Assembly (NCBI RefSeq): GCF_030812675.1
Contig: NZ_JAUSTE010000010.1
Span: 62,001 to 126,000 of the forward strand
Reading direction: 5' to 3'
DNA length: 64,000 nucleotides
DNA from: Sinomonas atrocyanea
Lineage (GTDB): Bacteria; Actinomycetota; Actinomycetes; Actinomycetales; Micrococcaceae
The notes under the pieces were generated by a model that saw only the letters and a list, made by a program, of their open reading frames with translations, made no database searches and was not told the origin of the DNA. A program made the position numbers and the translations under genes. Shown here in pieces: positions 15,603-42,330 of the stretch (its first letter is position 1; each line of letters begins with the position of its first letter).

Positions 15603-15700
15603 CTGGGAGTCACCTTCTGGGGGTCAGATCCTGGGGGTCACCTTCTGGGGGTCACCTTCTGAGAGTCACGTTCTGAGAGTCACCTTCTGGAGATCACGTC
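15603..15700. repeat. 14-bp tandem array, locus 1 (7 units)
   Basis: Seven consecutive 14-bp units of CTGGGGGTCACCTT type (variants CTGGGAG and CTGAGAG) fill 15603-15700, in the gap between the flavoprotein start and tRNA-Arg. The same unit forms arrays at 18140, 30323, 37784 and 42204. Confidence 0.9.
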
Positions 15701-15768
15701 CGTGTACGGGTGGGCGGCGGGGCCGCCGCGGGTCACCCGGCCGATCGCAGCCGGGCACGCGCCGTCGT

Positions 15769-15816
15769 GCGTACCCGGAGCGCGGAAAGGGCGGCGAGAT
15801 GCGTACCCGGAATGGA
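15769..15816. repeat. 32-bp-period dispersed repeat, locus A
   Basis: GCGTACCCGG occurs at 15769 and again exactly 32 bp later at 15801. The intervening bases (ending GGCGAGAT) resemble those of the 42411-42490 locus, which has the same 32-bp period. It lies just beyond the terminator of tRNA-Arg. Confidence 0.7.
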
Positions 15817-15817
15817 A

Positions 15818-15846
15818 AAGGACCCGGTCGCTGTGACCGGGTCCTT
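15818..15846 (-). terminator. terminator of tRNA-Arg
   Basis: A perfect 12-bp stem (AAGGACCCGGTC / GACCGGGTCCTT) with a 5-nt loop lies immediately downstream of the minus-strand tRNA-Arg gene. Confidence 0.85.
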
Positions 15847-15855
15847 CGTGTGTGG

Positions 15856-15929
<74 letters not shown>

Positions 15930-16049
15930 TTGCGTGCCGTTCGGTTCGTTCCCGCCCCGTTCGGCCTCGAATAACTGTACGCGAACACCCCGCCAACTCC
16001 AAATTGCCGGGGCATGGCCACAGCCGACGCCATGGGACGCCACAATAAC

Positions 16050-16061
16050 TAGACCGGTCTA
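16050..16061. promoter_or_regulatory. 12-bp palindrome upstream of pckG
   Basis: TAGACCGGTCTA is a perfect dyad about 160 bp before the pckG start, adjacent to the CRP-like site. It has the look of a dimeric repressor operator; the regulator is unknown. The remainder of 15930-16222 holds no gene. Confidence 0.45.
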
Positions 16062-16062
16062 C

Positions 16063-16076
16063 GTGACCTTGATCAC
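16063..16076. promoter_or_regulatory. candidate CRP/GlxR-type site
   Basis: GTGACCTTGATCAC has the GTGA-N6-TCAC form recognised by CRP/GlxR-family cAMP regulators in actinobacteria. It sits about 147 bp upstream of pckG. Gluconeogenic genes are known targets of this family, so control of pckG by carbon status is plausible. Confidence 0.5.
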
Positions 16077-16222
16077 TTAACTGGGATCCAAGTCGCTGTT
16101 CACCCGCGGAAACTCGCGATTTTCCGAAGCCAGGCTCTCCAATCAGTGACTTTCGCCCCCGGTGGTACAGACCACCTTCCCTAGCATGGAAGGACACGCC
16201 GACCCCACCGAAGGAGACCGAC

Positions 16223-18046
16223 ATGGGCGAAACTCGTCTGCCGCTGCTCGCGGAAGCCCCCACCACGTACGAGCCCCTGCTCTCCTGGGTCGAGGACATC
16301 GCCGAACTGACGAGGCCCGACCACATCCACTGGGTCGACGGCTCCGAGGCGGAGTACCGGCAGCTGACCGACGAGCTCGTCGCCGCTGGCACCCTCACCC
16401 GTCTGAACCCCGAGCTCTTCCCCAACTCCTTCGCGGCCTTCTCGGACCCCGCGGACGTGGCCCGCGTCGAGGAGCAGACCTTCATCTGCTCGCGGAACGA
16501 GCGCGACGCCGGCTTCACCAACAACTGGATGGACCCGGACGCCATGAAGGAGAAGCTCGAGGGCCTCTTCGACGGCTCCATGCGCGGCCGCACGATGTAC
16601 GTCATTCCGTTCGTCATGGGTCACCTCGACGCCGAGGACCCGAAGTTCGGCGTCGAGATCACCGACTCCGCCTACGTCGTGGCCTCGATGCGCATCATGG
16701 CGCGCATCGGCACCGACGTGCTGAAGAAGATGGAGGAGACCCGGGCGTTCTTCGTGCCGGCGCTGCACTCCGTGGGCGCCCCGCTCGAGGAGGGCCAGGA
16801 GGACGTGCCGTGGCCGTGCAACCCGGAGAAGTGGATCGTGCACTTCCCCGAGGAGCGCTCCATCTGGTCCTACGGCTCGGGCTACGGCGGCAACGCCCTG
16901 CTGGGCAAGAAGTGCTACGCCCTGCGTATCGCCTCCGTCATGGCACGGGACGAGGGCTGGCTGGCCGAGCACATGCTCATCCTCAAGCTCACAAGCCCCG
17001 AGAACAAGGTCTACAACATCGCCGCCGCGTTCCCGTCGGCCTGCGGCAAGACCAACCTCGCGCTCCTCGACCCGACTATCGAGGGCTGGAAGGTCGAGAC
17101 CCTCGGCGACGACATCACGTGGATGCGCTTCGGCAAGGACGGCGAGCTGCGCGCCGTCAACCCCGAGGCCGGCCTGTTCGGGGTGGCCCCCGGCACCGGC
17201 TGGGGCACCAACCCGAACGCGATGCGCGCCATCGCCAAGGGCAACAGCATCTTCACCAACGTCGCCCTCACCGACGACGGCGGCGTGTGGTGGGAGGGGA
17301 TGACCGAAGAGGTCCCCGCACACCTCACCGACTGGCAGGGCAACGACTGGACGCCGGACGCCGACCAGCCCGCCGCCCACCCCAACTCCCGGTTCTGCAC
17401 GCCGATCGACCAGATCGACATGCTGGCCCCCGAGTACTTCGCCCCGGACGGCGTCGAGGTCAACGCGATCCTCTTCGGCGGCCGCCGCAAGACCACTGTG
17501 CCGCTCGTGACGCAGTCGCACAGCTGGGCCCAGGGCATCTTCTACGGCGCCACGCTCTCCTCGGAGACCACCGCCGCCGCGGCCGGGGCCGTCGGCGTGG
17601 TCCGCCGCGACCCGATGGCGATGCTGCCGTTCATCGGCTACGACGCCGGCGACTACCTCGCCCACTGGGTGCGGGTCTCCGCGAAGGCCAACCCCGCGAA
17701 GCTGCCCAAGATCTTCCTCGTGAACTGGTTCCGCCGCACCCGGGACGGCGGGTTCGCGTGGCCCGGATTCGGCGACAACAGCCGTGTCCTCAAGTGGGCC
17801 ATCGAGCGCATCGAGGGCACCGCCGACGCGGCCGAGACGCCGATCGGCTTCGTGCCCACGCCGTCGAGCCTGGACCTCACCGGCCTCGACATGACCGAGG
17901 CCGAGGTCGACGAGGCGGTCCGCTTCGACCGCGACGAGTGGCTCAACGAGCTCCCCGGCCTCACCGAGTGGTTCGAGCGGTTCGGCGGCTCGCTGCCGAA
18001 GAGCATCACCGCCGAGCTCGACTCCCTCAAGACCCGTCTCGCCTGA
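16223..18046 (+). CDS. pckG: phosphoenolpyruvate carboxykinase (GTP)
   Basis: A 607-residue GTP-dependent PEP carboxykinase (EC 4.1.1.32), converting oxaloacetate and GTP to PEP, GDP and CO2: the entry step of gluconeogenesis, in the cytoplasm. The P-loop with reactive cysteine is [13 protein letters not shown] (near 270). Other family blocks include [29 protein letters not shown] and [16 protein letters not shown]. Full length for the family (about 600). ATG with AAGGAG 5-10 nt upstream. The upstream region contains a CRP-like site and a palindrome. A strong terminator follows, so it is monocistronic. The next gene also handles PEP. Confidence 0.98.
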
Positions 18047-18086
18047 GACGGCCATGACCCCGGCGGTTTAGACGGCGCCGGTCTTC

Positions 18087-18123
18087 AGGAGGGCTGCCCC
18101 GCTGCACACGGGGCGGCCCTCCT
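18087..18123 (+). terminator. pckG terminator
   Basis: A 15-bp stem (one G-T pair), AGGAGGGCTGCCCCG with CGGGGCGGCCCTCCT, and a 7-nt loop, followed by a T-rich stretch (ACTCTTT): a good intrinsic terminator 40 bp after the pckG stop. Confidence 0.88.
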
Positions 18124-18139
18124 ACTCTTTCCGCGGGCG

Positions 18140-18200
18140 CCTCCTGCGGGTGGCCTCCTGAGAGTCACCTTCCGGGGGTCACCTCCTGCGGGTGGCCTCC
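18140..18200. repeat. 14-bp tandem array, locus 2 (about 4 units)
   Basis: About four 14-bp units (CCTCCTGCGGGTGG, CCTCCTGAGAGTCA, CCTTCCGGGGGTCA, CCTCCTGCGGGTGG) plus a decayed fragment lie between the pckG terminator and the next gene. The phase is shifted relative to locus 1 but the unit is the same family. Confidence 0.8.
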
Positions 18201-18232
18201 CCGTGGCGGGGATGCGGCGGTACGTTGGAGCG

Positions 18233-20683
18233 ATGGACGACGGCGTCTCCTCACCTCGTGTCCTCCCGCTCGCCTCGGTGGGCGCTGACGACCTGCCCGC
18301 GGTGGGCGGCAAGGGCGCGAACCTCGGGGAACTGGTGGCCGCCGGGCTCCCGGTCCCGCCCGGGTTCGTCGTGACCACCGCGGCGTACCGCGCGCACGCC
18401 TCAGCCGCCGGACTCGACCCGGCGGCCGCCGCGGCGGATCCGGCCCGCGCCCGGGACCTCCTGACGCGCACGCCCCTCGCCCCCGCAACGCGGCACGGAA
18501 TCGCCGCCGCCCTGACGGACCTCGGACCGGAGGGCACCCGCGTCGCCGTCCGGTCCAGCGCGACAGCCGAGGACCTTCCCGGTGCGGCGTTCGCCGGGCA
18601 GCAGGACACCTTCCTGGACGTGACGGGCACGGACGAGGTGCTCGACGCCGTCCGCCGCTGCTGGGCCTCGCTCTGGACGGACCGGGCGGTGGCGTACCGG
18701 CAGCGCCAGGGGATCGGGCCGGAGGAGGTCGCGATCGCCGTCGTGGTCCAGCGCATGGTCCCGGCCCAGGCCGCCGGCGTGCTCTTCACGGCCAATCCGC
18801 TCACGGGCCGCCGCGCGGAGCTCGTGGTCGATGCCGCCCCGGGCCTCGGCGACGCCGTCGTCTCGGGCGAGGTCACCCCCGAGCACCTCGTCGTCGGCCG
18901 CGACGGTGCCGTGCGCTCGGTGCTGCCGCGGTACGAGGGCGCATCCCGCGTCCTCTCCGACGCCGCCGCCGCGCAGCTGGCCGCCCTCGCGGTCAGGGCC
19001 GAGGGGCACTTCAGCGGCCTCGCGGGCGAGGAGGTGCCGCAGGACATCGAATGGGCGCTCGCGGACGGGCGGATCAGCCTTGTCCAGGCCCGGCCCATGA
19101 CGGCGCTCCCGCCGGAGCCGCCGGAACTGGGCCGGATCCAGCGGACCGTGGGCCCGTTCTTCCTCGAGATGTTCGCGGTCCGGCCGTACCCCCTGGACGT
19201 CACCGGATGGCTCGCCCGCGGCGTGCTGCCGATGCTGGACCTCATGGCCGGCAGCATCGGGGTCCGCTTCCCGCCGCTCGGCCAGGTGATCCGGGAGCGC
19301 GAGGGCTTCCCGCTCCAGCTCGTCCCCCCTCGGCCCAGGCCGAGCCTGCCCATGGTCGGGGCACCGCTCTCTCTGGCACGGCGCGCGCGCCGGTACGACG
19401 TCCGCCGGTGGACCGCGGACCCGCTCCTGGCCGAGTTCGACGCCGCGGTGGCCGCCCTCGAGGCCGAGGACCCGGCCGCGCTCCCGTGGCCCGACCTCGT
19501 GCGGCGCGTGGACCGCTGCAATGCCTCGCTGGAGCCGGTGGCCAGGATCCGGGTGCGCTACCTGCCCTCGGCATTCGTCCCCTTCGCCCCGCTCCGTCTC
19601 CTGCTCGCCGCGCTCGGGCTCGGACGGCTCGCGTCGCCGCTCGTGGCGGGCGAGCGGACGCGGACGCGGGACGGCAACGACGCGCTCGAGTCGCTCGCCG
19701 GCGTCGTCCGCGCCGACCCGGAGCTGGCCCGCGCGGCGGCCGGGCCGGACCCCGCCGAATTCCTCCGCGCCGTCCGGCACCGCCCCGAGTTCGCAGGCTT
19801 TGCGGCAGAGCTGGACGCCTTCCTCGCCGAGTACGGGCACCGGGAGTCGGTCAGCGTGCTCCTGGCCACGGCGCCCACGTGGCGCGACGATCCCACCCCG
19901 GTCGCCGCGATCCTGATGTCCCTCGCGGCCGCGCCACCGGAGGGCCCCATGCCCGACAGGGCCGCGGAGGCCCTCTCGGAGCTCCTCGCCCACCCGCTCC
20001 TGCGGCCACGGCGCGCCGCGGCGGCCGCCCGCGCGGTGGTCGGCGCGTGCCGCCGCGGGCTCGCCTTCCGTGAGGACACCCACTTCCACGCCGCCCGGCT
20101 GCTGCCGCCGCTGCGCCACACCTTCCTCGAGCTCGGCCGCAGGCTCTCAGAGGTGGACGCCCTGGCGGCCCCCGAGGACGTGTTCCACCTCCGCTTCGAG
20201 GAGCTGGCCGCCCTTGCGGATCCGGTGGTGATGGACGACGCCGAGGCCGCCCGGGTGCGCGGCCTCGCCGCCCGCAGGGCGCGGCTGAGGCGGGAGTATG
20301 CGGGCGTGCCGATGCTCGACCCGGGGCTCTTTGCCCCGGCCCGCGCCGGAGCGGACGCCGCCGGCGCCCTGCTCTCGGGGACGCCGGCGAGCGGCGGGGT
20401 CGCTGAGGGGCCCGTGCGGGTGGTTTCCGGCCCCGAGGCCTTCGCCTCCCTGCGGGCAGGGGAGGTGCTGGTGTGCCCCAACACGAACCCCTCGTGGACC
20501 CCGCTGTTCGCCCGGGCGGCGGCGGTGGTCGTGGACACCGGCGGGCTGGGGTCCCACGCGGCGATCGTCGCCCGGGAGTACGGGGTGCCGGCCGTCATGG
20601 CGACCGGGCATGGAACGTCCGCGCTGCGGGACGGACAGCGCGTCCGAGTCGACGGCACCCGGGGGCGCGTCGACCTTCTGTGA
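18233..20683 (+). CDS. PEP-utilizing enzyme, rifampin-phosphotransferase-like architecture
   Basis: An 816-residue protein with three parts. An N-terminal PPDK/PEP-synthase ATP-grasp domain spans about 1-305 (VGGKGANLGEL, ATAEDLPGAAFAGQQDTFLD, DIEWALADG). A long middle domain spans about 310-720 and includes YGHRE...PTWRDDP and REDTHFHAARLLPPLR. A C-terminal swivelling phosphohistidine domain has the catalytic His near 775 (GGLGSHAAIVAREYGVPAV). It lacks the C-terminal PEP-binding barrel of PpsA/PPDK. The order ATP-grasp, substrate domain, His is that of rifampin phosphotransferases, which transfer the beta-phosphate of ATP. Whether rifamycins are the substrate is unknown. The ATG at 18233 follows TACGTT by 6 nt; a GTG at 18203 is less likely. 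Confidence 0.88.
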   Translation: MDDGVSSPRVLPLASVGADDLPAVGGKGANLGELVAAGLPVPPGFVVTTAAYRAHASAAGLDPAAAAADPARARDLLTRTPLAPATRHGIAAALTDLGPEGTRVAVRSSATAEDLPGAAFAGQQDTFLDVTGTDEVLDAVRRCWASLWTDRAVAYRQRQGIGPEEVAIAVVVQRMVPAQAAGVLFTANPLTGRRAELVVDAAPGLGDAVVSGEVTPEHLVVGRDGAVRSVLPRYEGASRVLSDAAAAQLAALAVRAEGHFSGLAGEEVPQDIEWALADGRISLVQARPMTALPPEPPELGRIQRTVGPFFLEMFAVRPYPLDVTGWLARGVLPMLDLMAGSIGVRFPPLGQVIREREGFPLQLVPPRPRPSLPMVGAPLSLARRARRYDVRRWTADPLLAEFDAAVAALEAEDPAALPWPDLVRRVDRCNASLEPVARIRVRYLPSAFVPFAPLRLLLAALGLGRLASPLVAGERTRTRDGNDALESLAGVVRADPELARAAAGPDPAEFLRAVRHRPEFAGFAAELDAFLAEYGHRESVSVLLATAPTWRDDPTPVAAILMSLAAAPPEGPMPDRAAEALSELLAHPLLRPRRAAAAARAVVGACRRGLAFREDTHFHAARLLPPLRHTFLELGRRLSEVDALAAPEDVFHLRFEELAALADPVVMDDAEAARVRGLAARRARLRREYAGVPMLDPGLFAPARAGADAAGALLSGTPASGGVAEGPVRVVSGPEAFASLRAGEVLVCPNTNPSWTPLFARAAAVVVDTGGLGSHAAIVAREYGVPAVMATGHGTSALRDGQRVRVDGTRGRVDLL

Positions 20684-20686
20684 CGG

Positions 20687-20809
20687 TTGAGGGGTCATGT
20701 CCCTGCCTTGAGGGGTCAGAAGACAGCGATGAGGGGTCAGGTCCTCTCGACACCTGACCCCTCATCGTGGGGATATGACCCCTCATCGTGGGGATATGAC
20801 CCCTCAGGA
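20687..20809. repeat. three-tier dyad of GAGGGGTCA / TGACCCCTC with 21-bp spacing
   Basis: GAGGGGTCA occurs at 20689, 20710 and 20731. Its complement TGACCCCTC occurs at 20755, 20776 and 20797. Each set is spaced by exactly 21 bp and mirrored about position 20747. The array fills the gap between two convergent genes. Confidence 0.85.
20728..20766. terminator. bidirectional terminator hairpin at the centre of the dyad
   Basis: A perfect 15-bp stem, GATGAGGGGTCAGGT with ACCTGACCCCTCATC and a 9-nt loop, between the convergent PEP-enzyme and ClpC-type genes. Confidence 0.75.
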
Positions 20810-23494
<2,685 letters not shown>

Positions 23495-23557
23495 CAGTTG
23501 TCCTCCGAGGGATATCGTGCGGTGGCGTTGGAGCGGGCTGGGGCTACAACGGTAGAA

Positions 23558-23578: not shown

Positions 23579-23650
23579 TTCAACGCTGTGTCCGACGAGA
23601 TATTCCCGAGGGGTATCGGTGCTCTGCGCCACACGGCTAGGTTGAGGACC

Positions 23651-29408: not shown

Positions 29409-30362
29409 GTGAAACCCCGCCACGCCGCCCTCGCCGTTCTCGTCGCCGTCCTCTGGGGGCTCAACTTCATCGCCATCGAGCTGGGACTCCGGGACGTCCC
29501 GCCGCTCGCCTTCGTGGCGCTGCGGTTCGCCCTCGTGGCCTTCCCCGCGGTGTTCTTCGTGAAGAAGCCAGACCTTCCCTGGCGGGTGATCGCGGGGGTG
29601 GGGGCCTTCATGAGCGCCGGGCAGTTCGGCCTCGTCTACCTCGCCATGCACCTCGGGATGCCGGCCGGACTCGCGCCCCTCGTGCTCCAGAGCCAGATGC
29701 TCTTCACGATCCTCCTCGCGGCGGCGGTGCTCAGGGAGCGGCCGACGGCGGCGCAGCTCGCCGGGGTGGGGGCCGGCGTCGTGGGCCTCGGCCTCGTCGC
29801 GGCGGGGCGCGGGGCCGTCGCGCCACTCGGTCCGATGCTGCTGGTGGTCCTGGCGGGCCTGTCGTGGGGGATCGGCAATACGATCTCGCGGGCGGCCAGA
29901 GGCACGTCCGGGCTCGGGCTCGTCGTGTGGTCCGCGCTCGTGGTGCCCGTGCCGATGCTCGCGCTCTCCGCCCTCGTGGACGGCCCGGCGGAGCTGCTCG
30001 GAGCGCTCGGCCACCTCACGCTGCCCGCCTGGCTGAGCACGGTCTTCACCGTGGTCCTCGCCTCGCTGGTCGGATACTCGGCGTGGAACACGCTGCTCGG
30101 GACCTACCCGGCCGCCGCAGTCGTCCCGTACACGCTGCTCGTCCCGCCGGTCGGGATGGTCGGGGCCTGGCTGGCGTTCGGCGAGGTGCCCGAGCCGCTT
30201 GAGCTCGTGGGCGGCGCCGTCCTGCTGTCCGGTGTGGCCACAGCCGTCCTCCGTCGCCGCACCGCCGCCCCTTCTGGGCCCGCCTCCAGGACGTCCCGCG
30301 CAGCGGCGCCCCGGAGGCGACCTCCAGGAGGTGACTTCCAGAAGGTGGCCTCCAGGAAGTGA
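29409..30362 (+). CDS. EamA-family exporter (O-acetylserine/cysteine exporter-like)
   Basis: A 317-residue DMT-superfamily protein with ten predicted helices. It resembles E. coli EamA along its first half: VLWGLNFIAIELGLRDVPPL, LRFALVAFPAVFFV, GMPAGLAPLVLQSQ. E. coli EamA exports O-acetylserine and cysteine; the substrate here is inferred. GTG start close after GATGAT and GGAGG. The divergent LysR gene is the likely regulator. Its last ~14 codons, encoding PPGGDFQKVASRK, lie inside or against a 14-bp repeat array, so the natural C-terminus has been replaced or extended by repeat sequence. Confidence 0.9.
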   Translation: MKPRHAALAVLVAVLWGLNFIAIELGLRDVPPLAFVALRFALVAFPAVFFVKKPDLPWRVIAGVGAFMSAGQFGLVYLAMHLGMPAGLAPLVLQSQMLFTILLAAAVLRERPTAAQLAGVGAGVVGLGLVAAGRGAVAPLGPMLLVVLAGLSWGIGNTISRAARGTSGLGLVVWSALVVPVPMLALSALVDGPAELLGALGHLTLPAWLSTVFTVVLASLVGYSAWNTLLGTYPAAAVVPYTLLVPPVGMVGAWLAFGEVPEPLELVGGAVLLSGVATAVLRRRTAAPSGPASRTSRAAAPRRRPPGGDFQKVASRK

Positions 30363-30406
30363 CTCTCAGAAGGCGGCCTCCAGGAAGTGACTCTCAGAAG
30401 ACGGTG
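30323..30406. repeat. 14-bp tandem array, locus 3 (6 units)
   Basis: Six units of TCCAGGAGGTGACT type (reverse orientation to loci 1 and 2) occupy 30323-30406. They cover the 3' end of the plus-strand exporter gene and the stop region of the convergent minus-strand gene. Confidence 0.88.
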
Positions 30407-30825: not shown

Positions 30826-30827
30826 CG

Positions 30828-34221: not shown

Positions 34222-36438
34222 ATGGCAGGCAGCGCGCGTGAAAGTGTCCATTCAGCGGAAAGTGTGACGGACCGTGACGATCCGCCCGGGGGTGCAGGCG
34301 GCGGCGCCGAGCAGCTGCGGTCGGAGGCGCTCGCGGTGCTGCGCACCCTCGTGGGCACCGAGGCGGCCGAGTTCCACCCGGGGCAGTTCGAGGCGATCGA
34401 GGCCCTCGTGGCCCACCACCGGCGCACGCTCGTGGTGCAGCGCACGGGCTGGGGGAAGTCCGCCGTGTACTTCGTCGCGTCCCTCCTCCTCCGCGCCCGC
34501 GGCGCGGGGCCGACGCTCATCGTCTCCCCGCTCCTGGCCCTCATGCGCGACCAGGTGGCGGCGGCGGCGCGGGCGGGCGTGCGCGCCGTCGCCATCAACT
34601 CGGCCAACCGGCTCGAGTGGGACGAGGTCCACGCGGCGCTCGAGGCTGATGCGGCCGATGTGGTCCTCATCTCGCCCGAGCGGCTCACCAACCCCTCGTT
34701 CCGCGAGCAGCACCTGCCCGAGCTGATGGCGCGGACCGGCCTGCTCGTCGTGGACGAGGCGCACTGCATCTCGGACTGGGGGCACGACTTCCGCCCGGAC
34801 TACCGCCGCATCGCGGCGCTCATCGACGAGCTGCCCGGCTCGGTGCCGGTCCTCGCGACGACGGCCACCGCCAACGCCCGCGTGGTCCACGACATCGAGG
34901 AGCAGCTCGGCTCGGACGTCCTCACGCTTCGAGGACCGCTGGGCCGCGAGTCCCTGCGCCTCGGCGTGCTCGCTCTGCCCGACGCCGGCCACCGCCTCGC
35001 GTGGCTCCTGGCCCACCTCGAGGAGCTGCCCGGCAGCGGGATCATCTACACGCTCACCGTCTCCGCCGCGGAGGACACGGCGCGCATCCTCACCGAGGCT
35101 GGGCACCGGGTCCTGGCCTACACCGGCAAGACGGACACCGAGGACCGGGAGCGGGCCGAGCAGCTGCTCAAGGACAACGAGGTCAAGGCCCTCGTGGCCA
35201 CGAGCGCCCTCGGGATGGGCTTCGACAAGCCGGACCTCGGGTTCGTTGTCCACCTGGGAGCGCCGTCGAGCCCGGTCGCCTACTACCAGCAGGTGGGCCG
35301 CGCGGGCCGCGGCGCCGCGAACGCGGACGTCCTCCTCCTGCCCGGCCCCGAGGACCGCGACATCTGGCGCTACTTCGCGACCGCGTCGATGCCGGATCAG
35401 GACAAGGCGCAGGCCGTCATCGCGGTGCTGGCCGAGGCGGGGCGCCCCCTCTCGACCGTGGCCCTCGAATCCGCGGTCGAGCTGCGCCGCACCCAGCTCG
35501 AGCTGCTCCTGAAGGTCCTCGCCGTGGACGGGGCCGTCGAGCGGGTCGGCGGCGGGTGGCAGGCCACCGGGCTGCCCTGGGAGTACGACGCCGAGCGGTA
35601 CGCGCGCATCGCGGAGGCGCGGGTCGCGGAGCAGGACTCGATGGTGGTCTACGAGCAGACCGCAGGCTGCCGCATGGAGTACCTCACGAGCGTGCTCGAC
35701 GACGACACCGCTGCCCCCTGCGGCCGCTGCGACACGTGCGCCGGGCGGTGGTTCCCGGACGACGTCGACCCGTCCGTCCTCGAGCGCGCCGGAACCCAGC
35801 TGCGCCATGCGGGCATCCCGATCGAGCCGCGGGCGCAGTGGCCCTCGGGCATGGACAAGCTCGGCGTGGCGGTCAAGGGCAGGATCCCGGTGGGGGAGCA
35901 GCTCGCCGAGGGCCGGGCCCTCGCCCGCCTGACCGATCTCGGCTACGGCGGCCCGCTCAGGGAGCTCTTCGCCGCGGGGGCGCCGGACGCCGAGGTCCCT
36001 CCCGCGCTGGCCCGGGCCTGCGTCGAGCTGCTCTCGGCCTGGGCGCGCGGCGACTCTGCGGCCGGGGCGTGGGGAGGTGCGGGGCGTCCCGCCGCCGTGG
36101 TGAGCGTGCCCTCGGCCACGCGGCCGCAGCTTGTCGACTCGCTTGCGCGGGGGATCGCCCAGGTGGGGCGCCTGCCGTACCTCGGCGCGCTCGAGCGCAC
36201 CGACGCGGCCCGGGCAGGCCAGGGCGGGGGCAACAGCGCGTTCCGCCTCGCCGGGGTCTGGGAGGCGTTCGACGTCGGGGCCGACCTGCGCGAGCAGCTC
36301 GCTGCGGTCGCCGGCCAGCCCGTGCTCCTCGTGGACGATCTGGTCGACAGCCGGTGGACCGTCACGGTCGCCGGCCGTCTCCTGCGCCGGCACGGCGTCG
36401 GCGCGGTCCTGCCCCTCGCCCTCGCTCAGGCGGGATAA
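34222..36438 (+). CDS. RecQ-family DNA helicase with C-terminal phosphoribosyltransferase-like domain
   Basis: A 738-residue protein. A RecQ helicase core spans about 30-420: Walker A RTGWGKSAVYF, DEAHCISDWGHDFRPDYRR, and motif VI AYYQQVGRAGR. A zinc-binding knuckle has cysteines in AGCRMEY and CGRCDTC (near 485-515). A C-terminal domain of about 130 residues, AVVSVPSATRPQLVDSLARG to the end, contains VLLVDDLVDSRWTVTVAG, the PRPP-binding fingerprint of type I phosphoribosyltransferases (ComF-like). There is no HRDC domain. The ATG at 34222 lies 7 nt after CATACT; a GTG at 34192 would add 10 residues over this promoter. The role is in DNA repair/recombination; the second domain is unexplained. 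Confidence 0.9.
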   Translation: MAGSARESVHSAESVTDRDDPPGGAGGGAEQLRSEALAVLRTLVGTEAAEFHPGQFEAIEALVAHHRRTLVVQRTGWGKSAVYFVASLLLRARGAGPTLIVSPLLALMRDQVAAAARAGVRAVAINSANRLEWDEVHAALEADAADVVLISPERLTNPSFREQHLPELMARTGLLVVDEAHCISDWGHDFRPDYRRIAALIDELPGSVPVLATTATANARVVHDIEEQLGSDVLTLRGPLGRESLRLGVLALPDAGHRLAWLLAHLEELPGSGIIYTLTVSAAEDTARILTEAGHRVLAYTGKTDTEDRERAEQLLKDNEVKALVATSALGMGFDKPDLGFVVHLGAPSSPVAYYQQVGRAGRGAANADVLLLPGPEDRDIWRYFATASMPDQDKAQAVIAVLAEAGRPLSTVALESAVELRRTQLELLLKVLAVDGAVERVGGGWQATGLPWEYDAERYARIAEARVAEQDSMVVYEQTAGCRMEYLTSVLDDDTAAPCGRCDTCAGRWFPDDVDPSVLERAGTQLRHAGIPIEPRAQWPSGMDKLGVAVKGRIPVGEQLAEGRALARLTDLGYGGPLRELFAAGAPDAEVPPALARACVELLSAWARGDSAAGAWGGAGRPAAVVSVPSATRPQLVDSLARGIAQVGRLPYLGALERTDAARAGQGGGNSAFRLAGVWEAFDVGADLREQLAAVAGQPVLLVDDLVDSRWTVTVAGRLLRRHGVGAVLPLALAQAG

Positions 36439-36563
36439 CGGGGGACGGCAGGGCGGCACCGGCTGAATGTGACACGCCCCACGTCACAGGATGATCACGG
36501 ATTGGTCACGGTTCGGTAGGGTGGAGCGAAGAGAACATCTGTGACTTAGACGAAAGGGCCCCC

Positions 36564-37523
36564 GTGAGCCACCCGGCCCCGCCGATCGTCCGGCGTCTGG
36601 CCTTCCTTGCCGTGCTTCTGGGTGCCCTTGCCATCCTGCTCCCCGGGGTCCTGGCCCCGGGGGCCTCCGCGGCGGAGGGCCACGTGCCCGCGTCGCCGAG
36701 CGTCCCGGACCCGACCCCGTCGCCCACCCCGACGCCCGCCGGGCCGGCTGCCCAAGTGGCCCTCGCGCGCGCTGCCTGTGACTCAGTGCGCCTCACCGCG
36801 CGGACGGATGCCACGTCGCCCATGACGTACCGCGTCGCCGACGAAGCCGGAAACGTCGTGGCGACGGGCACCTTCTCCGGATCGGTGGATCGGGTCCTCT
36901 CACTTTCGACCGGGCATGACTACACGGCGGCCGTCGGGCCTGCGGGAGCCGACCCGATCGCCACGTCCTCGCCGGCCAGCCTGCGGGATGCCTGCCCGGT
37001 CTCCGTCACCGCAGATGCCCCCGGCTTCGACGATCCATGCGGCACCCAGGCCGACGCGGTCGTGGCGCCCACGATCATCGGGGTGGACTACCGCGTGGGC
37101 GGCACCGTGCTCGCGCCCGGGGCCAATTCCGCCGTGGGGATGGTGACCGTCGAGGCGAGCGCCCGGCCCGGCTACGTCCTCAAGGGCCCCTCGCGGTGGA
37201 CGCACACGTTCTCCGCCGCGCCATGCGCGGGCTCGGCACAGGCGGCGCCCGAGCCCCAGGAGGAGGCCCCTGCGCCCGCACCGCCACCTGCCGTCCCGCC
37301 CGCGGCGTCCGCTCCGGGCACCGGCACCTCCGTGGCCGCCCCGCCCGCGCCGCAAACACCGGCGCCCACTCAGGAACCCGAGCTCGACGCCTCCACCTCG
37401 CGCTCGGCCGCCCAGCCCGCCATGCAGGCTTCGATGGGCGGTCCGGGGCCCCTCGAATGGAGCATCATGATTGCCATCGCGGTGGCCGGCGGCGTCGCCT
37501 TCTGGCTCAAGACCCGCCACTGA
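36564..37523 (+). CDS. secreted, C-terminally membrane-anchored hypothetical protein
   Basis: A 319-residue surface protein. The signal peptide is at about 1-37 (RLAFLAVLLGALAILLPGVL, then ASAAEG cleavage region). Two short beta-rich repeats with cysteines lie at about 60-225 (ACDSVRLTA, ACPVSVTA). A Pro/Ala-rich stalk spans about 225-290, followed by a C-terminal membrane helix (WSIMIAIAVAGGVAFWL) with a short basic tail. There is no LPxTG motif, so anchoring is by the helix. GTG start with GAAAGGG upstream. Family not recognised; cell-wall-spanning display is inferred from the architecture. Confidence 0.75.
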   Translation: MSHPAPPIVRRLAFLAVLLGALAILLPGVLAPGASAAEGHVPASPSVPDPTPSPTPTPAGPAAQVALARAACDSVRLTARTDATSPMTYRVADEAGNVVATGTFSGSVDRVLSLSTGHDYTAAVGPAGADPIATSSPASLRDACPVSVTADAPGFDDPCGTQADAVVAPTIIGVDYRVGGTVLAPGANSAVGMVTVEASARPGYVLKGPSRWTHTFSAAPCAGSAQAAPEPQEEAPAPAPPPAVPPAASAPGTGTSVAAPPAPQTPAPTQEPELDASTSRSAAQPAMQASMGGPGPLEWSIMIAIAVAGGVAFWLKTRH

Positions 37524-37583
37524 GGCCCAGCGGCACGGGCCAAGGCCGTGCGCGCTCCGAGGAGCCTGCGGTCCGAGAATGCA

Positions 37584-37618
37584 GAAACGCCCCCGGTTCC
37601 ATGAACCGGGGGCGTTTC
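37584..37618 (-). terminator. terminator of tRNA-Ser(GCT)
   Basis: A perfect 16-bp stem GAAACGCCCCCGGTTC / GAACCGGGGGCGTTTC with a 3-nt loop, directly downstream of the minus-strand tRNA. It also ends the convergent plus-strand gene at 37523. Confidence 0.9.
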
Positions 37619-37625
37619 CACTCGG

Positions 37626-37714
37626 CGGAGACGGGGGGATTTGAACCCCCGGTCCAAGTTTCCCCGGACCCTTCATTAGCAGTGAAGTCCATTCGGCCGC
37701 TCTGGCACGTCTCC
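37626..37714 (-). tRNA. tRNA-Ser (GCT)
   Basis: On the minus strand an 89-nt class II tRNA: acceptor GGAGACG/CGTCTCC, D-arm GCCAGAGCGGCCGAATGG, anticodon loop CTGCTAA (anticodon GCT, reads AGY serine), a long variable arm (GGGTCCGGGGAAACTTGGACC), T-arm GGGGGTTCAAATCCC, discriminator G. CCA is not encoded. Confidence 0.97.
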
Positions 37715-37783
37715 TTGCTGTCGCCAGCCTGACAAGCGTACCCAACCCGGAGGGCGAGAGCAAAAACCTCGCCCCGCTCGAGT

Positions 37784-37944
37784 CTTGGAGGTCACCTTCA
37801 GGAGGTGACCCCCAGAAGGTGCCCCCCAGGAGGTGACCCCCAGGAGGTGACTCCCAGGAGCGGGGTCAGCGCAGGAGGTGACTCTCAGGAGGTGACCCCC
37901 AAGAGGTGACTCCCAGGAGGTGACTCCCAGGAGCGGGGTCAGCG
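37784..37944. repeat. 14-bp tandem array, locus 4 (about 9 units, with internal duplication)
   Basis: One forward unit (CTTGGAGGTCACCTT) is followed by about nine reverse units of CAGGAGGTGACCCC type. A longer block, CAGGAGCGGGGTCAGCG, occurs twice (37853 and about 37927). The second copy contains the stop codon of the S9 peptidase gene. Confidence 0.88.
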
Positions 37945-40185
37945 CAGGGTGCCGGTCAGGGCGCGCCACAGGAAGGTCTGGCTGCGGGCCTGCAGGGCCG
38001 CGGCCTGCCGGTTGTCCGAGGCCCCGGCGTGCCCGCCCTCGAGGGCCTCGTGGAACCAGACGTTCGGGATGCCCATGGCCTCCATGCGCGCGGCCATCTT
38101 GCGCGCCTGCACGGGCCCCACGCGGTCGTCGGAGGTCGCCGTCCAGATGAAGGTGTCCGGGTAGTCCACGCCGTCCCGCAGCAGGTGGTACGGGGAGAAG
38201 GTGCGGATGGACTCCCACTCGGCCGGATTGTCCGGGTCCCCGTACTCCGCGATCCACGAGTAGCCGGCGGAGAGCTTCGTGTACCGGCGCATGTCCAGCA
38301 GCGGCACCCCGCAGGAGATCGCTCCGAACAGCTGGGGGTAGCCCACCAGCATGTTCCCCACGAGCAGGCCGCCGTTGGAGCCGCCCGAACAGCCCAGGTG
38401 CTCGGGTGAGGTGACCCCGCGCCGGACGAGGTCCCGGGCCACCGCGGCGAAGTCCTCGTAGGCGCGGTGCCGCTTCTCCTTGAGCGCGGCCTGGTGCCAC
38501 GCCGGCCCGTACTCGCCGCCGCCGCGGATGTTCGCCACGACGTACACCCCGCCCTTCTCGAGCCACGCGCGCCCCACGGTGCCCGAGTAGGCGGGCGTGC
38601 GGGAGATCTCGAACCCGCCGTACCCCGACAGCTGGGTCGGCGCGGTCCCGTTGAGGACGAGCCCCTTGGGGCCGACCTGGAAGTACGGGACCTGGGTGCC
38701 GTCCGCCGAGACGGCGAAGTGCTGCTCGACCTCGAACCGTGACTCGTCGAAGAACGACGGCGCGCGCTTCACCTCGGCATGCTCCCCGCCGAGGGTGCCG
38801 CGCAGCAGCGTGGTCGGGGTCAGGAAGCCGGTGGCCACGAGCCAGTAGTCGTCCCCGGCGGCCGGGTCTTCGTCGTCCACCGCGTACGACTCGACGAGGT
38901 GCAGCGGGGGGCACGCATCGAGCACCCGGGGCGACCACGCGGCGTCGTCCGCCGATTCCTCCTGCTCTGCAGACTCCGGCTCCGCAGCCGCAGCCCCGCG
39001 CACGGGCGGGGTGAGGACACGGATCTCGGAGGAGACGTCGCGGAGGAGGTTGAGCAGCAGGTGGCTCCTGGTCCACGACCACGACTGCAGCGAGGTGTGG
39101 GCATCCGGCGCGAACAGCACCCTGACCTCCCGCGAGCCGGCCATGAACGCCTCGAAGTCGGCGGCCAGGAGCGACCCCGCGGGGAACACGCGCCCGTTCG
39201 CGCCGTCCTGGCCGGCCCGGTCTTGGCCGGCGCCGTCCTGGTCCGCGCCGTCGGCGCCGAAGTGCCAGTCGCGCTGGGGCCGGAACAGGATCCACTCCCG
39301 GTGCAGGTCAACGTCCACATCGGTGGGCACGGGGATGCGCTGCCAGGCGCCGTCCCACCAGATCGAGTGCTCGACGTCGAAGAAGCTGATGCGGTCGCTC
39401 GCGATGAGGCGCTCGAACCCGGGAGTGTCGTCGAATCCGGCGCCGGCCATCATGTGCTCTGCGGGGACCTCGAAGATCACCTCGGCGTCGGCGAGGTCGG
39501 TGCCGCGCGGCAGCCTGCGCACGATCCGCGGGTAGGAGGACGTGGTGACCGCGTCCTCGCCGAGGGTCGAGGAGACCAGGAGGGTGTCGGAATCCAGCCA
39601 GTCCACCCCGCCCTTCGCGGCGGGGAGGGCGAAGCCGCCCTCGGCGGGGTCGACGAAGGCGCGGTCCTCGACGTCGTACTCCCGCACGGCCGCGGCATCG
39701 CCGCCGTCGGGGGAGAGCCGGACCATGCAGCGCCGCCACGAGATCCCGTCCGCCGGGCGCAGGAAGTTGGCCCCGCCCCAGACCCACTCGACCCCGTCCG
39801 CGGCAGCCAGCGCATCGACGTCGAGCACGGTCTCCCACTCGGGGGTCCGGGTCACATAGGACTCCCACCGGGTCCGCCGCCACAGCCCCTTGGGGTGCTC
39901 GCCATCCCGCCAGAAGTTGTAGTACCAGTCTCCGCGCTTGGCGACCATGGGGATCCGGTCCGTCGAGTCCATGACCTCGAGGATCCGTGCCTCGAGCTCG
40001 GGGTAGTCGGCCGTCTCGAGCAGTTCCTCCGTGCGGGCGTTCTGCTCCCGCACCCACGCGAGCTGGTCCTCGCCATGGATGTCCTCGAGCCACAGGTTCT
40101 CGTCGACGGGCTGGTCTGCGGGGACGGGGGCGGCCGGGGCAAGGGTGGCGGTGTCCGCGGCGGACTCTGGCGGCTGGGCAGTCAT
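37939..40185 (-). CDS. S9-family prolyl oligopeptidase
   Basis: A 748-residue serine peptidase. A beta-propeller-like N-terminal part spans about 30-480. An alpha/beta-hydrolase domain follows, with nucleophile Ser in GCSGGSNGG (near 600), Asp in TSDDRVGP (near 680) and His in EGGHAGAS (near 717). Conserved lead-in motifs YGGFEISRTPAYSG and NIRGGGEYGPAWHQAALKEK fit prolyl oligopeptidase S9A. No signal peptide, so probably cytoplasmic degradation of proline-containing peptides. Insertions rich in Asp/Gly/Gln (near 320-335) and Glu (near 410-425) are probably loops. ATG with GGAAGG upstream. The 3' end abuts a 14-bp repeat array. Confidence 0.93.
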   Translation of the reverse strand: MTAQPPESAADTATLAPAAPVPADQPVDENLWLEDIHGEDQLAWVREQNARTEELLETADYPELEARILEVMDSTDRIPMVAKRGDWYYNFWRDGEHPKGLWRRTRWESYVTRTPEWETVLDVDALAAADGVEWVWGGANFLRPADGISWRRCMVRLSPDGGDAAAVREYDVEDRAFVDPAEGGFALPAAKGGVDWLDSDTLLVSSTLGEDAVTTSSYPRIVRRLPRGTDLADAEVIFEVPAEHMMAGAGFDDTPGFERLIASDRISFFDVEHSIWWDGAWQRIPVPTDVDVDLHREWILFRPQRDWHFGADGADQDGAGQDRAGQDGANGRVFPAGSLLAADFEAFMAGSREVRVLFAPDAHTSLQSWSWTRSHLLLNLLRDVSSEIRVLTPPVRGAAAAEPESAEQEESADDAAWSPRVLDACPPLHLVESYAVDDEDPAAGDDYWLVATGFLTPTTLLRGTLGGEHAEVKRAPSFFDESRFEVEQHFAVSADGTQVPYFQVGPKGLVLNGTAPTQLSGYGGFEISRTPAYSGTVGRAWLEKGGVYVVANIRGGGEYGPAWHQAALKEKRHRAYEDFAAVARDLVRRGVTSPEHLGCSGGSNGGLLVGNMLVGYPQLFGAISCGVPLLDMRRYTKLSAGYSWIAEYGDPDNPAEWESIRTFSPYHLLRDGVDYPDTFIWTATSDDRVGPVQARKMAARMEAMGIPNVWFHEALEGGHAGASDNRQAAALQARSQTFLWRALTGTLR

Positions 40186-40223
40186 GGGGCCATCCTTCCA
40201 CGCCGCACGTTAAGCTCAACCCT

Positions 40224-42221
40224 ATGGTTCGGGGCGGGATTCTGCGTGTGGCGGTGGTGGGCGGCGGCCCCCGCGGAGCCTCCGCCGTCGAGCGTCTCCT
40301 CGCCGTGCACGCCCAGCGGTCGGCCCCCGCGCACGACGCCGACGCCTCCCCGCGCGGCCGCCCCGCCGCCCGCGGAGCCCGCCTCGAGATCACCGTCTAT
40401 GACCCGTTCGCCCCCGGGCCCGGCAAGGTCTGGCGCCCGGCGCAGCCGCGCCTGTTCCTCATGAACACCCAGGCCTTCTATCCCACGCTCATCCCGAGCG
40501 AGCCCGGCCTCGCGCACCCTCTCGCGGGAGGGAGCTTCGACTCGTGGCGCGCGGCCCAGCGCGAGGCGATCGACGCCGGAACGTGCACCCTCGCAGCCGA
40601 GGAGCAGGCCGAGCTCAAGGGCCTCGAATCGAGCGACTTCCCGCCGCGCGCGCTCTACGGGCGCTACCTCGCCCAGACGTGGGACGCGGTCCTCGCAGCG
40701 GCGCCGCCCGGGGCGGCCGTGCGGCACGTGCCGGCCGAGGTTGCCCGGGTGGGGCGCACTCCCCACGGGTTCGCCGTCACCTGCTCCAACGGCCGCGCCC
40801 AGGAAGCGGACGCCGTCGTCCTCGCGCTCGGCCACGTGCCCGCCCAGCCCAGCCCCGAGCAGGCGGCGCTCGCCGACGCGGCGGCGCATCTGGGGCTGCA
40901 CTACCTGCCGCCGGCGGCTCCCGCCGATGTGGACTGGGACCGGCTGCCGGCGGGCGAGACCGTGCTGGTGCGCGGCATGGGGCTGAACTTCTTCGACGTG
41001 ATGGCCGCGCTCACCGAGGGCCGCGGCGGCCGGTTCGCCGAGGGGCACGACGGGCGGCTCGTGTACACGCCGTGCGGGCGCGAGCCGCTCATCGTCGCCG
41101 CCTCCCGGCGCGGGGTGCCGTACCGGGGCAAGGCCGAGCTCGATGCCTACTACGCTCCCTCCGTCGAGCTGCGCTGGCTCACCCGAGCGGCAGCCCTCGC
41201 CCCGCGGCAGGCCGGGATCCAGCCCTCCTTCGACCAGGACCTCTGGCCCCTCCTGCACCGCGACACACTGTGGGCGTACTATGCGACCCTCGCCCGGGTC
41301 GAGCCCGCGGCCGTGTCCGAGGGCTTCCTCGGAGAGCTCTCGTCCGCGCTGGCCGTGGAGGGCCCGGGCTGGGAGCCGCGCGCCTCGGCGGTGGTGCGCG
41401 ACGGCGTGGTCCCGGCCCGGCGGCTCGACCTCCGTGCGCTGGGGGCGCCGCTGGCCGGCTGGCACGCCGCCGACCGCGCCGAGCTCGACGCCCGGGTCCT
41501 CGCGTACCTCGATGAGGACGCCGCAGGATCCGCGCGGGGAGAGTACGACCCGGTCAAGATGGCCATCGCCGCCCTCCACCGGGGCCGGGCGGTGCTCAAG
41601 GAGGCCGTGGCGGACGGCGGCATCACCGAGGCCTCGTGGGTCTCGGGCCTGCGCGGCTGGTTCGAGGGGCTCGCCGAGGGCCTCGCGAGCGGGCCGCCTG
41701 CCCAGCGGATCCGCCAGCTGGCCGCCCTCATGCGCGCTGGGATCGTGAGCACCGTGGGGCCCGAGCCCCGCTTCTCCGTGGACCGCCTCGCGCGCACCTT
41801 CACCGCAGCCTCGCCCTGGGTGGGCGGCCCGGAGGTGCGCTCGCGCTGGCTGGTCGAGGCCCTCGCGCCGGCGAACGCCGTGGCGCGGGCCGACTCTCCG
41901 CTGCTGTCCGGCCTGCTGGCGGACGGCCTCGTGCGGCCGCGCTTCCTCGCGGGCGCGGACGGGGTGCCGCAGCCCGCTACCGGGCTGGACGTCACCTCAC
42001 CGCCGTACCGCGCGCTCGACGTCAACGGCCTGCCGGTCGAGGGCCTCTACGTGCTGGGCCTCCAGCTCTCCGCGGTGCAGTGGGGCACCGCGATCGCCGC
42101 CGAGGCCCACCCGTTCGCCGCGCCGGGCGAAGCGCACGAGGGCGCCCCCTATCCCAGCGGGCAGCGCACCCTCCGCGACGCGGACGCCATCGCGCGGGAC
42201 ATTCTGGGAGTCACCTCCTGA
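40224..42221 (+). CDS. FAD/NAD(P)-binding protein
   Basis: A 665-residue flavoprotein of the NAD_binding_9 type. The dinucleotide motif is VAVVGGGPRGASAVERLL (10-27), with later blocks VYDPFAPGPGKVWR, LALGHVPAQPS and VLVRGMGLNFFDVMAALTEG. Such proteins are often annotated as hydroxyacylglutathione-like or amine-oxidase-related, but their substrates are unknown. The ATG at 40224 lies 7 nt after TAAGCT (leaderless) in a 38-bp divergent gap from the S9 peptidase. The final residues ILGVTS are encoded by the first unit of a 14-bp repeat array. Confidence 0.85.
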   Translation: MVRGGILRVAVVGGGPRGASAVERLLAVHAQRSAPAHDADASPRGRPAARGARLEITVYDPFAPGPGKVWRPAQPRLFLMNTQAFYPTLIPSEPGLAHPLAGGSFDSWRAAQREAIDAGTCTLAAEEQAELKGLESSDFPPRALYGRYLAQTWDAVLAAAPPGAAVRHVPAEVARVGRTPHGFAVTCSNGRAQEADAVVLALGHVPAQPSPEQAALADAAAHLGLHYLPPAAPADVDWDRLPAGETVLVRGMGLNFFDVMAALTEGRGGRFAEGHDGRLVYTPCGREPLIVAASRRGVPYRGKAELDAYYAPSVELRWLTRAAALAPRQAGIQPSFDQDLWPLLHRDTLWAYYATLARVEPAAVSEGFLGELSSALAVEGPGWEPRASAVVRDGVVPARRLDLRALGAPLAGWHAADRAELDARVLAYLDEDAAGSARGEYDPVKMAIAALHRGRAVLKEAVADGGITEASWVSGLRGWFEGLAEGLASGPPAQRIRQLAALMRAGIVSTVGPEPRFSVDRLARTFTAASPWVGGPEVRSRWLVEALAPANAVARADSPLLSGLLADGLVRPRFLAGADGVPQPATGLDVTSPPYRALDVNGLPVEGLYVLGLQLSAVQWGTAIAAEAHPFAAPGEAHEGAPYPSGQRTLRDADAIARDILGVTS

Positions 42222-42330
42222 GGGTCACCTCCTTGGGGGTCACCTCCTGGGGGTCACCTCCTGGGGGTAGCCTCCTGGGGGTCACCTCCTGGGAACCCAC
42301 ACGTGGTGACCTTCAGGAGGTGACTCCCAG
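42204..42330. repeat. 14-bp tandem array, locus 5 (6 forward, 2 inverted units)
   Basis: Six forward units of CTGGGGGTCACCTC type start inside the last codons of the preceding gene. They are followed by two reverse units ending at 42330. The outer ends, CTGGGAGTCACCTCCTGA and TCAGGAGGTGACTCCCAG, are perfect 18-bp inverted repeats, so the whole element can fold. Confidence 0.9.

What the first reader, a model, noticed from the sequence alone, without database searches (positions are those of the whole stretch)
15603..42330. Family of 14-bp tandem-repeat arrays at five intergenic loci
Arrays of the same 14-bp unit (CTGGGGGTCACCTC and variants) occur at 15603-15700, 18140-18200, 30323-30406, 37784-37944 and 42204-42330, with 4-10 units each, in both orientations. 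All are at intergenic junctions, usually near gene 3' ends. The unit carries GGTCACC/GGTGACC, and two arrays end with units in opposite orientation, so they can fold. They do not match classical REP, BOX or CRISPR. Recurrence within 27 kb suggests many copies genome-wide and an active copying or slippage process, or a protein-binding role.
Basis: seen in the sequence. Interest (0 to 1): 0.72.

Follow-up and report, generated by a model that had tools for sequence, protein, structure and literature searches.

The report
Fourteen-base repeat arrays after genes
One soil-bacterium genus (Sinomonas) carries dozens of arrays of a 14-letter DNA unit, mostly just after the ends of genes; half of the letters in each unit are kept almost unchanged between species while the rest drift, as expected of a binding site for an unknown protein rather than of junk or a simple RNA hairpin.

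Summary
The five arrays are real and belong to a large family confined to one genus. The window's 4.12-Mb genome, a Sinomonas, has 143 dimer matches against 0 for the reversed control and 51 array clusters. Of 295 family genomes, only Sinomonas exceeds chance. The unit is GRASSTGACYYYCA; G1, A3, T6, G7, C9, C13 and A14 are nearly invariant.

Arrays sit beside stop codons (median 15 bp), rarely between divergent genes. The coding strand usually reads (TGRRRGTCASSTYC)n: 35 of 44, 46 of 57 and 36 of 48 blocks in three species.

Sites persist between close species while copy number changes. In nine gap-free orthologous arrays, invariant positions differ at 4 of 252, variable positions at 72 of 252, flanks at 351 of 2518. 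Of 39 arrays, 18 are single-orientation and fold little better than shuffles, yet keep the core equally. None of 15 genomes has a Y1/RAYT transposase. One close species lost most units; a sister clade has a similar hairpin family.

Best reading: arrays of binding sites for an unidentified factor at gene 3' ends. The factor is inferred, not found.

The parts
15604..15701 (-). Array of 7 units, single orientation (+ strand reads TGGGAGTCACCTTC...; unit written GRASSTGACYYYCA is on the - strand). 39 bp upstream of the oxidoreductase start (14149-15564, -), about 150 bp beyond tRNA-Arg 3' end. Atypical position.
18133..18200 (-). Decayed array, two strong units (18159-18186), between PEP carboxykinase (16223-18046, +) and a PPDK_N/PEP-utilising-domain protein (start at 18203 or 18278, +)
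30313..30396 (+). Array of 6 units, single orientation with 28-bp alternation, at a convergent junction; overlaps the predicted 3' end of the + strand ORF and abuts the - strand gene end at 30394
37786..37929 (+). Array: one unit on the - strand then 8 on the + strand in two groups, with a duplicated 73-bp block; ends 9 bp before the 3' end of the prolyl-oligopeptidase gene (37939-40185, -); tRNA-Ser (-) on the other side
42205..42289 (-). First arm of a two-armed array (6 units, one degenerate), starting at the 3' end of the + gene ending at 42221
42302..42329 (+). Opposite arm (one weak and one strong unit); the pair folds strongly (z about -7)

Best explanation
The arrays are clusters of short, strand-asymmetric binding sites (core CAG-N-A-NN-TG-N-C, repeated every 14 bp) for an unidentified sequence-specific factor of Sinomonas, placed where transcription leaves genes. 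Most likely the factor binds double-stranded DNA and acts as a polar boundary or roadblock that ends or insulates transcription, above all between convergent genes. RNA polymerase leaving a gene would usually meet the same face of the array, and in two-armed arrays both convergent polymerases would. Shown: family size and genus restriction; position and orientation; constraint on seven positions in place, in foldable and hardly folding arrays alike; site retention with changing copy number; mass loss in one lineage. Inferred: that a protein is what reads the unit; that it reads DNA rather than RNA; that the effect is on transcription ends; that the unit number changes by duplication and deletion of 14-bp and 28-bp steps.
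For: In-place constraint: in 9 gap-free orthologous arrays (36 units) of G000 and G002, invariant positions differ at 4 of 252, variable positions at 72 of 252 and flanks at 351 of 2518. The 42 comparisons together give 4-7% at the invariant positions, 12.5% in flanks and 24-47% at the variable positions. The constraint does not need folding: 18 single-orientation arrays fold little better than shuffles (median z -1.0, range -2.8 to 0.9) against 21 two-orientation ones (median -6.2), yet middle units keep the invariant positions as well as in two-armed arrays (0.966 v 0.957 in G000, 0.995 v 0.994 in G002). Little covariation: pairs within the unit hairpin do not covary beyond shuffles, except a borderline 2-12 pair in G000 (reached by 23-25 of 500 shuffles) not repeated in G002. 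Facing units of the two arms are no more alike than re-dealt arms (0.62 v 0.61, 0.54 v 0.54). Placement: the nearest gene end within 60 bp is a 3' end in 44 of 48, 57 of 63 and 48 of 52 blocks, in one sense in 35 of 44, 46 of 57 and 36 of 48. Blocks between divergent genes: 0 of 64, 1 of 80, 1 of 55, although divergent gaps make up 35 of 179 and 29 of 169 gaps in the G000 and G002 regions. Orientation switches are (-)(+) in 19, 27 and 18 cases against 3, 3 and 3. Sites are old: 42 of 48 G000 clusters compared had units within the orthologous stretch in G002.
Against: The G002 regions in the constraint test were fetched because they hold an array, though their units were not required to match; position classes were defined on the same units. 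About a quarter of blocks have the opposite sense (9, 11 and 12), and with single units and distances up to 100 bp the ratio weakens to 38 v 14. The window's own 15604 array is at a gene start. By cluster, 2 of 51 looked divergent (one resolved by a tRNA, one with a doubtful gene call). G003 has 27 strong units where G000 has 114 at 22 places, 12 with none, although its flanks are 89-97% identical, so arrays are dispensable there. At two sites an independent hairpin remains beside the array or its lost place, so the array is not the only 3'-end signal. Only 17 of 49 G005 clusters are at sites that bear an array in G000, so sites turn over. No expression or binding data exist here.
Confidence: 0.42

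Rival explanations
1. The arrays are 3'-end RNA hairpins: bidirectional, U-tract-free terminators or 3'-end stabilisers whose stems lengthen in 14-bp steps.
For: Two-orientation clusters fold far below shuffles (21 clusters, median z -6.2). They have recurring tips (such as TGCGGGT..ACCCGCA) and bases (CCGTC..GACGG). In G003 two arrays are reduced to a short hairpin. The sister clade has 3'-end hairpins (type B) whose arms covary: position 5 identical in 25 of 25 (19.6 shuffled), position 6 in 21 of 25 (12.0), position 9 in 23 of 25 (14.0). One gene end carries type A in six species and type B in three others.
Against: 18 of 39 arrays folded are single-orientation and fold little better than shuffles (three of these 18 belong to junctions with widely spaced arms, L127 and L137), but are equally conserved. 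Facing units do not covary. No T-run terminator was found in window 37000-43000, though shuffles gave only 1.0 on average, so this says little. Separate hairpins sit next to some arrays and outlive them in G003.
Confidence: 0.27
2. The arrays are non-autonomous mobile repeats (REP, BOX or MITE-like) that spread by an unknown enzyme into gene ends, where insertion does least harm, and then change by slippage.
For: Polar edges ACCCVCA-(unit)n-GANGG, dispersed placement, scarcity between divergent genes, and sites that differ between more distant species (17 of 49 shared) with places in the own window that lack the array.
Against: No Y1 transposase (PF01797) in 15 of 15 genomes, control rings in 5 of 14; other transposase families were not searched. 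No viral contig holds the type A dimer. Nearly all compared sites shared between G000 and G002. Old copies at fixed sites keep the core instead of decaying. No target duplication was recognised by eye at the four places viewed.
Confidence: 0.2
3. Neutral minisatellites: strand slippage at palindromic 3'-end sequence, without function.
For: Copy number differs in 32 and layout in 35 of 42 orthologous pairs. Runs of identical units and 28-bp alternation in G002; lag-2 identity 0.75 and 0.71, and lag 1 above random in G002 (0.649 v 0.592). Large loss in G003.
Against: Seven positions per unit differ far less than the flanks. Adjacent units in G000 are no more alike than random units (0.655 v 0.653), so the conserved core is not just recent duplication. 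Consistent orientation relative to genes.
Confidence: 0.09
4. Shine-Dalgarno or anti-Shine-Dalgarno decoys: the commonest unit holds GGAGGTGA, whose complement TCACCTCC equals part of the 16S rRNA tail (recalled).
For: The match in the commonest units (the rRNA tail is recalled).
Against: Positions 2, 4 and 5, inside that match, vary (G/A, G/C), while constrained letters lie partly outside it. Arrays sit after stops, not before starts.
Confidence: 0.02

Closest known systems
REP elements, GTAG and CGTC super-families (PMC3733652; abstract, the first two of eight text parts and search passages read)
   Same: Short dispersed repeats downstream of genes, between codirectional and convergent ORFs, often in opposite orientation; CGTC REPs have no dedicated transposase; type A two-armed ends often carry CCGTC and type B contains CGTC.
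   Different: REPs are 20-40 bp palindromes with an unpaired tag; head-to-tail pairs are negligible in CGTC families. Here the tandem head-to-tail unit is the rule, the core is asymmetric and facing arms do not covary. The five phyla named for CGTC repeats do not include Actinobacteria, and the main text has no occurrence of Actinobacteria, Arthrobacter or Sinomonas.
BOX elements of Streptococcus pneumoniae, boxA-(boxB)n-boxC (PMC3049150; search passages read)
   Same: Distinct end modules around a variable number of tandem inner units; enriched between convergent genes.
   Different: Different size, sequence and host; BOX is predicted to form stem-loops when transcribed, while single-orientation arrays here hardly fold.
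TAACTGA direct repeats of marine Beggiatoaceae (PMC4679880; abstract and outline read)
   Same: Many intergenic sets of a short direct repeat; a sequence-specific binder is proposed but unknown.
   Different: Most of those lie just upstream of start codons and suggest translational control; these lie mostly after stop codons.
Roadblock terminators such as TTF-I/Sal boxes and Tus/Ter (recalled, no call)
   Same: What it may work like: polar, repeated protein sites downstream of transcription or at fork barriers.
   Different: No protein known here; no homology claimed.

Membership tests
REP (RAYT-driven, GTAG) | RAYT/Y1 transposase in the genome | tested here: not met
   PF01797 in 0 of 15 genus genomes; control rings in 5 of 14
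REP (GTAG or CGTC) | each unit a 20-40 bp palindrome with complementary stem | tested here: not met
   type A unit is 14 bp; no covariation except one borderline pair in G000 and none between arms. Type B hairpins do covary
REP (GTAG or CGTC) | unpaired terminal GTAG or CGTC tag | tested here: inconclusive
   CCGTC/GACGG edges are common but face each other and can pair in two-armed arrays
REP (GTAG or CGTC) | located downstream of genes, between codirectional or convergent ORFs | tested here: met
BOX | different end modules around variable tandem inner modules | tested here: met
   ACCCVCA and GANGG edges, copy number varies
BOX | boxA/boxB/boxC sequence | not tested
   no BOX sequence was compared
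CRISPR | repeats separated by unique spacers | tested here: not met
   units are mostly head to tail without spacers
MITE | terminal inverted repeats, target duplication, matching transposase | tested here: inconclusive
   outer inverted ends in two-armed arrays; no duplication recognised by eye at four places; transposases other than PF01797 not searched
Intrinsic terminator | stem-loop followed by a U-run | tested here: not met
   0 found in window 37000-43000, the only stretch scanned; 18 of 39 arrays hardly fold
Protein-bound site array | identified binding protein | not testable with these tools
   inferred only from constraint

The most novel reading that the evidence does not exclude
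Sinomonas has a dedicated, lineage-specific DNA-binding protein that reads a degenerate 14-bp unit and builds polar protein arrays at the 3' ends of dozens of genes. These serve as roadblock terminators or insulators between convergent genes: a bacterial counterpart of Sal-box termination. The whole system can be lost in one lineage and is matched by a hairpin system built on the same GTCASSTY core in the sister clade.
Probability: 0.24. Interest if true: 0.8.

Novelty: new variant of a known kind. Interest (0 to 1): 0.58.

Why it matters
Small dispersed repeats in bacteria are usually explained as selfish elements or as hairpins. Here the data point to a third possibility: the core of the unit is protected in place, also where it hardly folds, while neighbouring letters drift. 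If a protein reads these arrays, it would be a new way for a bacterium to mark or end genes, and the natural loss in G003 offers a way to find the factor by comparing gene content.

Tried and rejected
Anti-Shine-Dalgarno decoys: rejected because letters of the match are among the variable ones. RAYT/REP: no Y1 transposase in 15 of 15 genomes. Unit-internal hairpin: no covariation beyond one borderline pair in G000. Facing-arm pairing under selection: not seen. Pure local slippage: adjacent units no more alike than random in G000, though lag 2 is higher and G002 shows homogenised runs. Described RNA family: Rfam matches in the window are three tRNAs and a c-di-AMP riboswitch, none at an array. 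Phage origin: type A dimer in 0 viral contigs; type B gave 2 related contigs with a lone half-site and no partner arm, not followed further. Shared function of neighbours: 20 adjacent proteins were mostly enzymes, with three regulators, a transporter and two without a family; no common theme. Enrichment around coordinate 1 of two genomes: 38 of 56 clusters in G002 (p 0.01), 32 of 51 in G005 (p 0.09); weak, origin position assumed. Literature: (one search failed on a bad term). No paper on repeats of Sinomonas was seen in those listings; the papers holding Sinomonas there (1, 3) were seen as titles and abstract starts only. PMC12306157 was checked by passages and has no occurrence of Sinomonas or 'tandem'.

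Rows dropped: of 124 own-genome model rows, the 20 with E above 0.004 were not used for clusters. For G002, 140 rows up to E 0.005 of 156 matches were used; the list was cut. For G005, 71 of 95 matches were used because the list was cut; three of the 51 resulting clusters did not pass my unit threshold and one was split, giving 49. Of 48 G000/G002 comparisons, 4 could not be separated from a neighbour and 2 had no alignment (one of these 2 is the edge of the neighbouring window array). Only 9 of 42 alignments were gap-free. Type B was described from 40 regions that I picked from the listed places of G014 and G006.
Full report
WHAT WAS CHECKED. The five arrays are present at the stated places with period 14. 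The consensus, written on the strand that begins GGAGG, is GRASSTGACYYYCA. In the own genome (G000, 4.12 Mb, 32 contigs) a two-unit pattern with up to three mismatches occurs 143 times, against 0 for the reversed pattern. A sequence-only model of three units gives 124 matches at E up to 1 (a lower bound, because only 150 first-look candidates were scored). The 104 strongest fall into 51 clusters, all of which were fetched or lie in the window.

WHERE IT OCCURS. In the 15 genomes of the genus, 9 have matches, with totals of 186, 143, 136, 103, 30, 25, 16, 3 and 1; six have none. Of 295 genomes of the family (the genus included), 18 match; the 9 outside the genus have one match each, as many as the reversed control gives (9 matches in 7 genomes). 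An exact two-unit pattern over the collection of 84,980 species found eight stretches, all Sinomonas (strain R1AF57 and S. atrocyanea DS1018). The tool notes that the own genome may be left out there. The genus is therefore Sinomonas; the species of the window is not known.

ANATOMY. Units that were not selected themselves (flanked in phase by units on both sides) keep G1, A3, T6, G7, C9, C13 and A14 in 92-100%; A8 is kept in 85-87%. Position 2 is G or A, 4 and 5 mostly G or C, 10-12 mostly C or T. Arrays have polar edges: ACCCVCA before the first unit and GANGG (N mostly C or A) after the last, as majority letters. Typical two-armed arrays read CCGTC-(TGRRRGTCASSTYC)n-TGCGGGT...ACCCGCA-(GRASSTGACYYYCA)m-GACGG, with variation. 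The order (-)(+) occurs 19, 27 and 18 times against 3, 3 and 3 for (+)(-) in G000, G002 and G005.

POSITION. With a simple codon-based gene caller of my own, blocks of at least two units lie between convergent genes in 29, 40 and 33 cases, between codirectional genes in 29, 39 and 21, and between divergent genes in 0, 1 and 1 (G000, G002, G005; a further 6 in G000 lack one neighbour). Gaps between divergent genes are available: 35 of 179 and 29 of 169 gaps in the G000 and G002 regions. Counted by cluster, 2 of 51 in G000 looked divergent: the window array at 15604, which has a tRNA on the other side, and L148, where the gene call is doubtful. Where the nearest gene end is within 60 bp it is a 3' end in 44 of 48, 57 of 63 and 48 of 52 blocks, and the coding strand reads TGRRRGTCASSTYC in 35 of 44, 46 of 57 and 36 of 48 (sign tests 1e-4, 3e-6, 7e-4). 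With single units included and up to 100 bp, the G000 ratio is 38 to 14. G000 and G002 are not independent, because they share sites. The median distance to the 3' end is 15 and 14 bp in G000 and G002.

HISTORY. An unrooted tree from two genes separates G000, G002, G003, G005, G004, G009, G010 and G011 from G008, G006, G013, G007, G014, G001 and G012 (the order of G000, G002 and G003 is unresolved). Of 46 queried G000 regions, 43 align to array-bearing regions of G002. Of 48 clusters compared in detail, 42 have units within the orthologous stretch, 4 could not be separated and 2 did not align. Copy number differs in 32 of the 42, and layout is identical in only 7. Against the more distant G005, 17 of 49 clusters are at a place that has an array in G000. 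Four G005 arrays correspond to places in this window without a type A array: at 20.7 kb a different 21-bp repeat, at 25.4 kb a 17-bp gap (the far flank differs), at 26.5 kb an ordinary hairpin, and at 54.3 kb (the far flank is rearranged) a GAAGGTGACC..GGTCACCTTC hairpin.

A NATURAL LOSS. G003, about 93% identical to G000 and G002 in the two tree genes, has 27 strong units where G000 has 114, at the 22 of 24 queried places that were found, within 270 bases of the anchor; 12 of the 22 have none. Two places (L128, L155) keep all four units and a third (L127) has five in another layout. At the L140 place the array is gone but the neighbouring hairpin remains; at the THF dehydrogenase/cyclohydrolase gene end only CTGGGGtgCCCCAG is left. 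Because G002, G005 and G004 have arrays at sites that G003 lacks, this is most simply loss.

CONSTRAINT. In nine orthologous arrays of G000 and G002 that align without gaps (36 units), the seven core positions differ at 4 of 252, the other seven at 72 of 252, and the 150-bp flanks at 351 of 2518. G000 units were chosen by a weight matrix; G002 units were not required to match, but the G002 regions had been fetched because they hold an array; the position classes were defined on the same data. Over all 42 comparisons the values are 4-7%, 24-47% and 12.5%, where repeat alignment is ambiguous. In the 7 pairs with the same layout the core differs at 2 of 193 and the rest at 55 of 193, a set that favours conservation. 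Single-orientation arrays fold little better than shuffles (18 of the 39 arrays folded; median z -1.0, against -6.2 for the other 21), yet keep the core equally well. There is no covariation between facing arms, and inside the unit only one borderline pair in G000. A selfish or neutral copy at an old site would not be expected to keep just these letters, and hairpin pairing does not explain why hardly folding arrays keep them. This is why I prefer recognition of the unit by a factor.

RELATED FAMILY. Species without type A arrays carry GTCASSTYYGCAGGGT elements (type B). With the pattern GTCACCTCYGCAGGGT and one mismatch there are 129 places in G014, 45 in G006, 10 in G012 and 0-3 in the others. 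Exact matches to GTCACSTCYGCAGGGT are found in 5 Sinomonas genomes and once in another genus among 295. In 40 regions picked from G014 and G006 they form hairpins with a loop of about four bases, and in G014 also single-orientation arrays with a step of about 32 bp. In 25 simple pairs the arms covary. They too lie at gene ends: 24 convergent, 19 codirectional, 3 divergent, 9 without one neighbour and 1 inside a gene. The innermost part of many type A two-armed arrays, GTCASSTYCTGCGGGT, resembles type B. One gene end (THF dehydrogenase/cyclohydrolase by Pfam) has type A in G000, G002, G004, G005, G010 and G011 and type B in G007, G012 and G014. That type A grew out of a type B-like hairpin is an inference.

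MECHANISM. Two-armed arrays would hide single-stranded sites in a duplex RNA, while double-stranded DNA shows every unit in both array types; so a DNA-binding factor is the better guess. The preferred sense after genes suggests that direction of transcription matters, as with polar roadblocks (analogy recalled).

COMPARISON WITH KNOWN KINDS. REP elements share the position, and CGTC REPs share the lack of a transposase, but REPs are single palindromes and CGTC families have few head-to-tail pairs (PMC3733652). BOX elements share the modular build (PMC3049150). TAACTGA repeats share the idea of a lineage-specific binder but lie mostly before start codons (PMC4679880). No paper on these repeats was seen in the listings, which cover open-licence papers only.

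Noticed in passing
window 15795, 42437, 42469: A second dispersed repeat family, with CGAGATGCGTACCC and GCGTACCCGGA motifs, also found elsewhere in G000 and in G002, G003 and G008.
   Followed up: partly
window 20685-20810: A 21-bp tandem repeat (TGACCCCTCATCGTGGGGATA) with inverted TGAGGGGTCA copies at a convergent junction where R1AF57 (G005) has a type A array; it shares the TGAC..CA core.
   Followed up: partly
window 54297-54331: Hairpin GAAGGTGACCCCCC..GGCGGGTCACCTTC at a place where R1AF57 (G005) has a type A array; possibly a one-unit relative.
   Followed up: partly
L347 from 1521 and L334 from 1503 (G014): Long single-orientation type B arrays with steps of mostly 31-32 bp, up to 18 copies.
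   Followed up: no
L127 2500-2853 and L137 2505-2876: Two convergent junctions have the two arms about 210-260 bp apart, with about 66% similar sequence over 373 columns that include the arms.
   Followed up: no
own genome C1, C15, C21, C23 contig ends: Several arrays lie within about 2 kb of contig ends, possibly because of repeats at assembly breaks.
   Followed up: no
window 5532-5724 (-): c-di-AMP riboswitch, Rfam RF00379, 62 bits.
   Followed up: no
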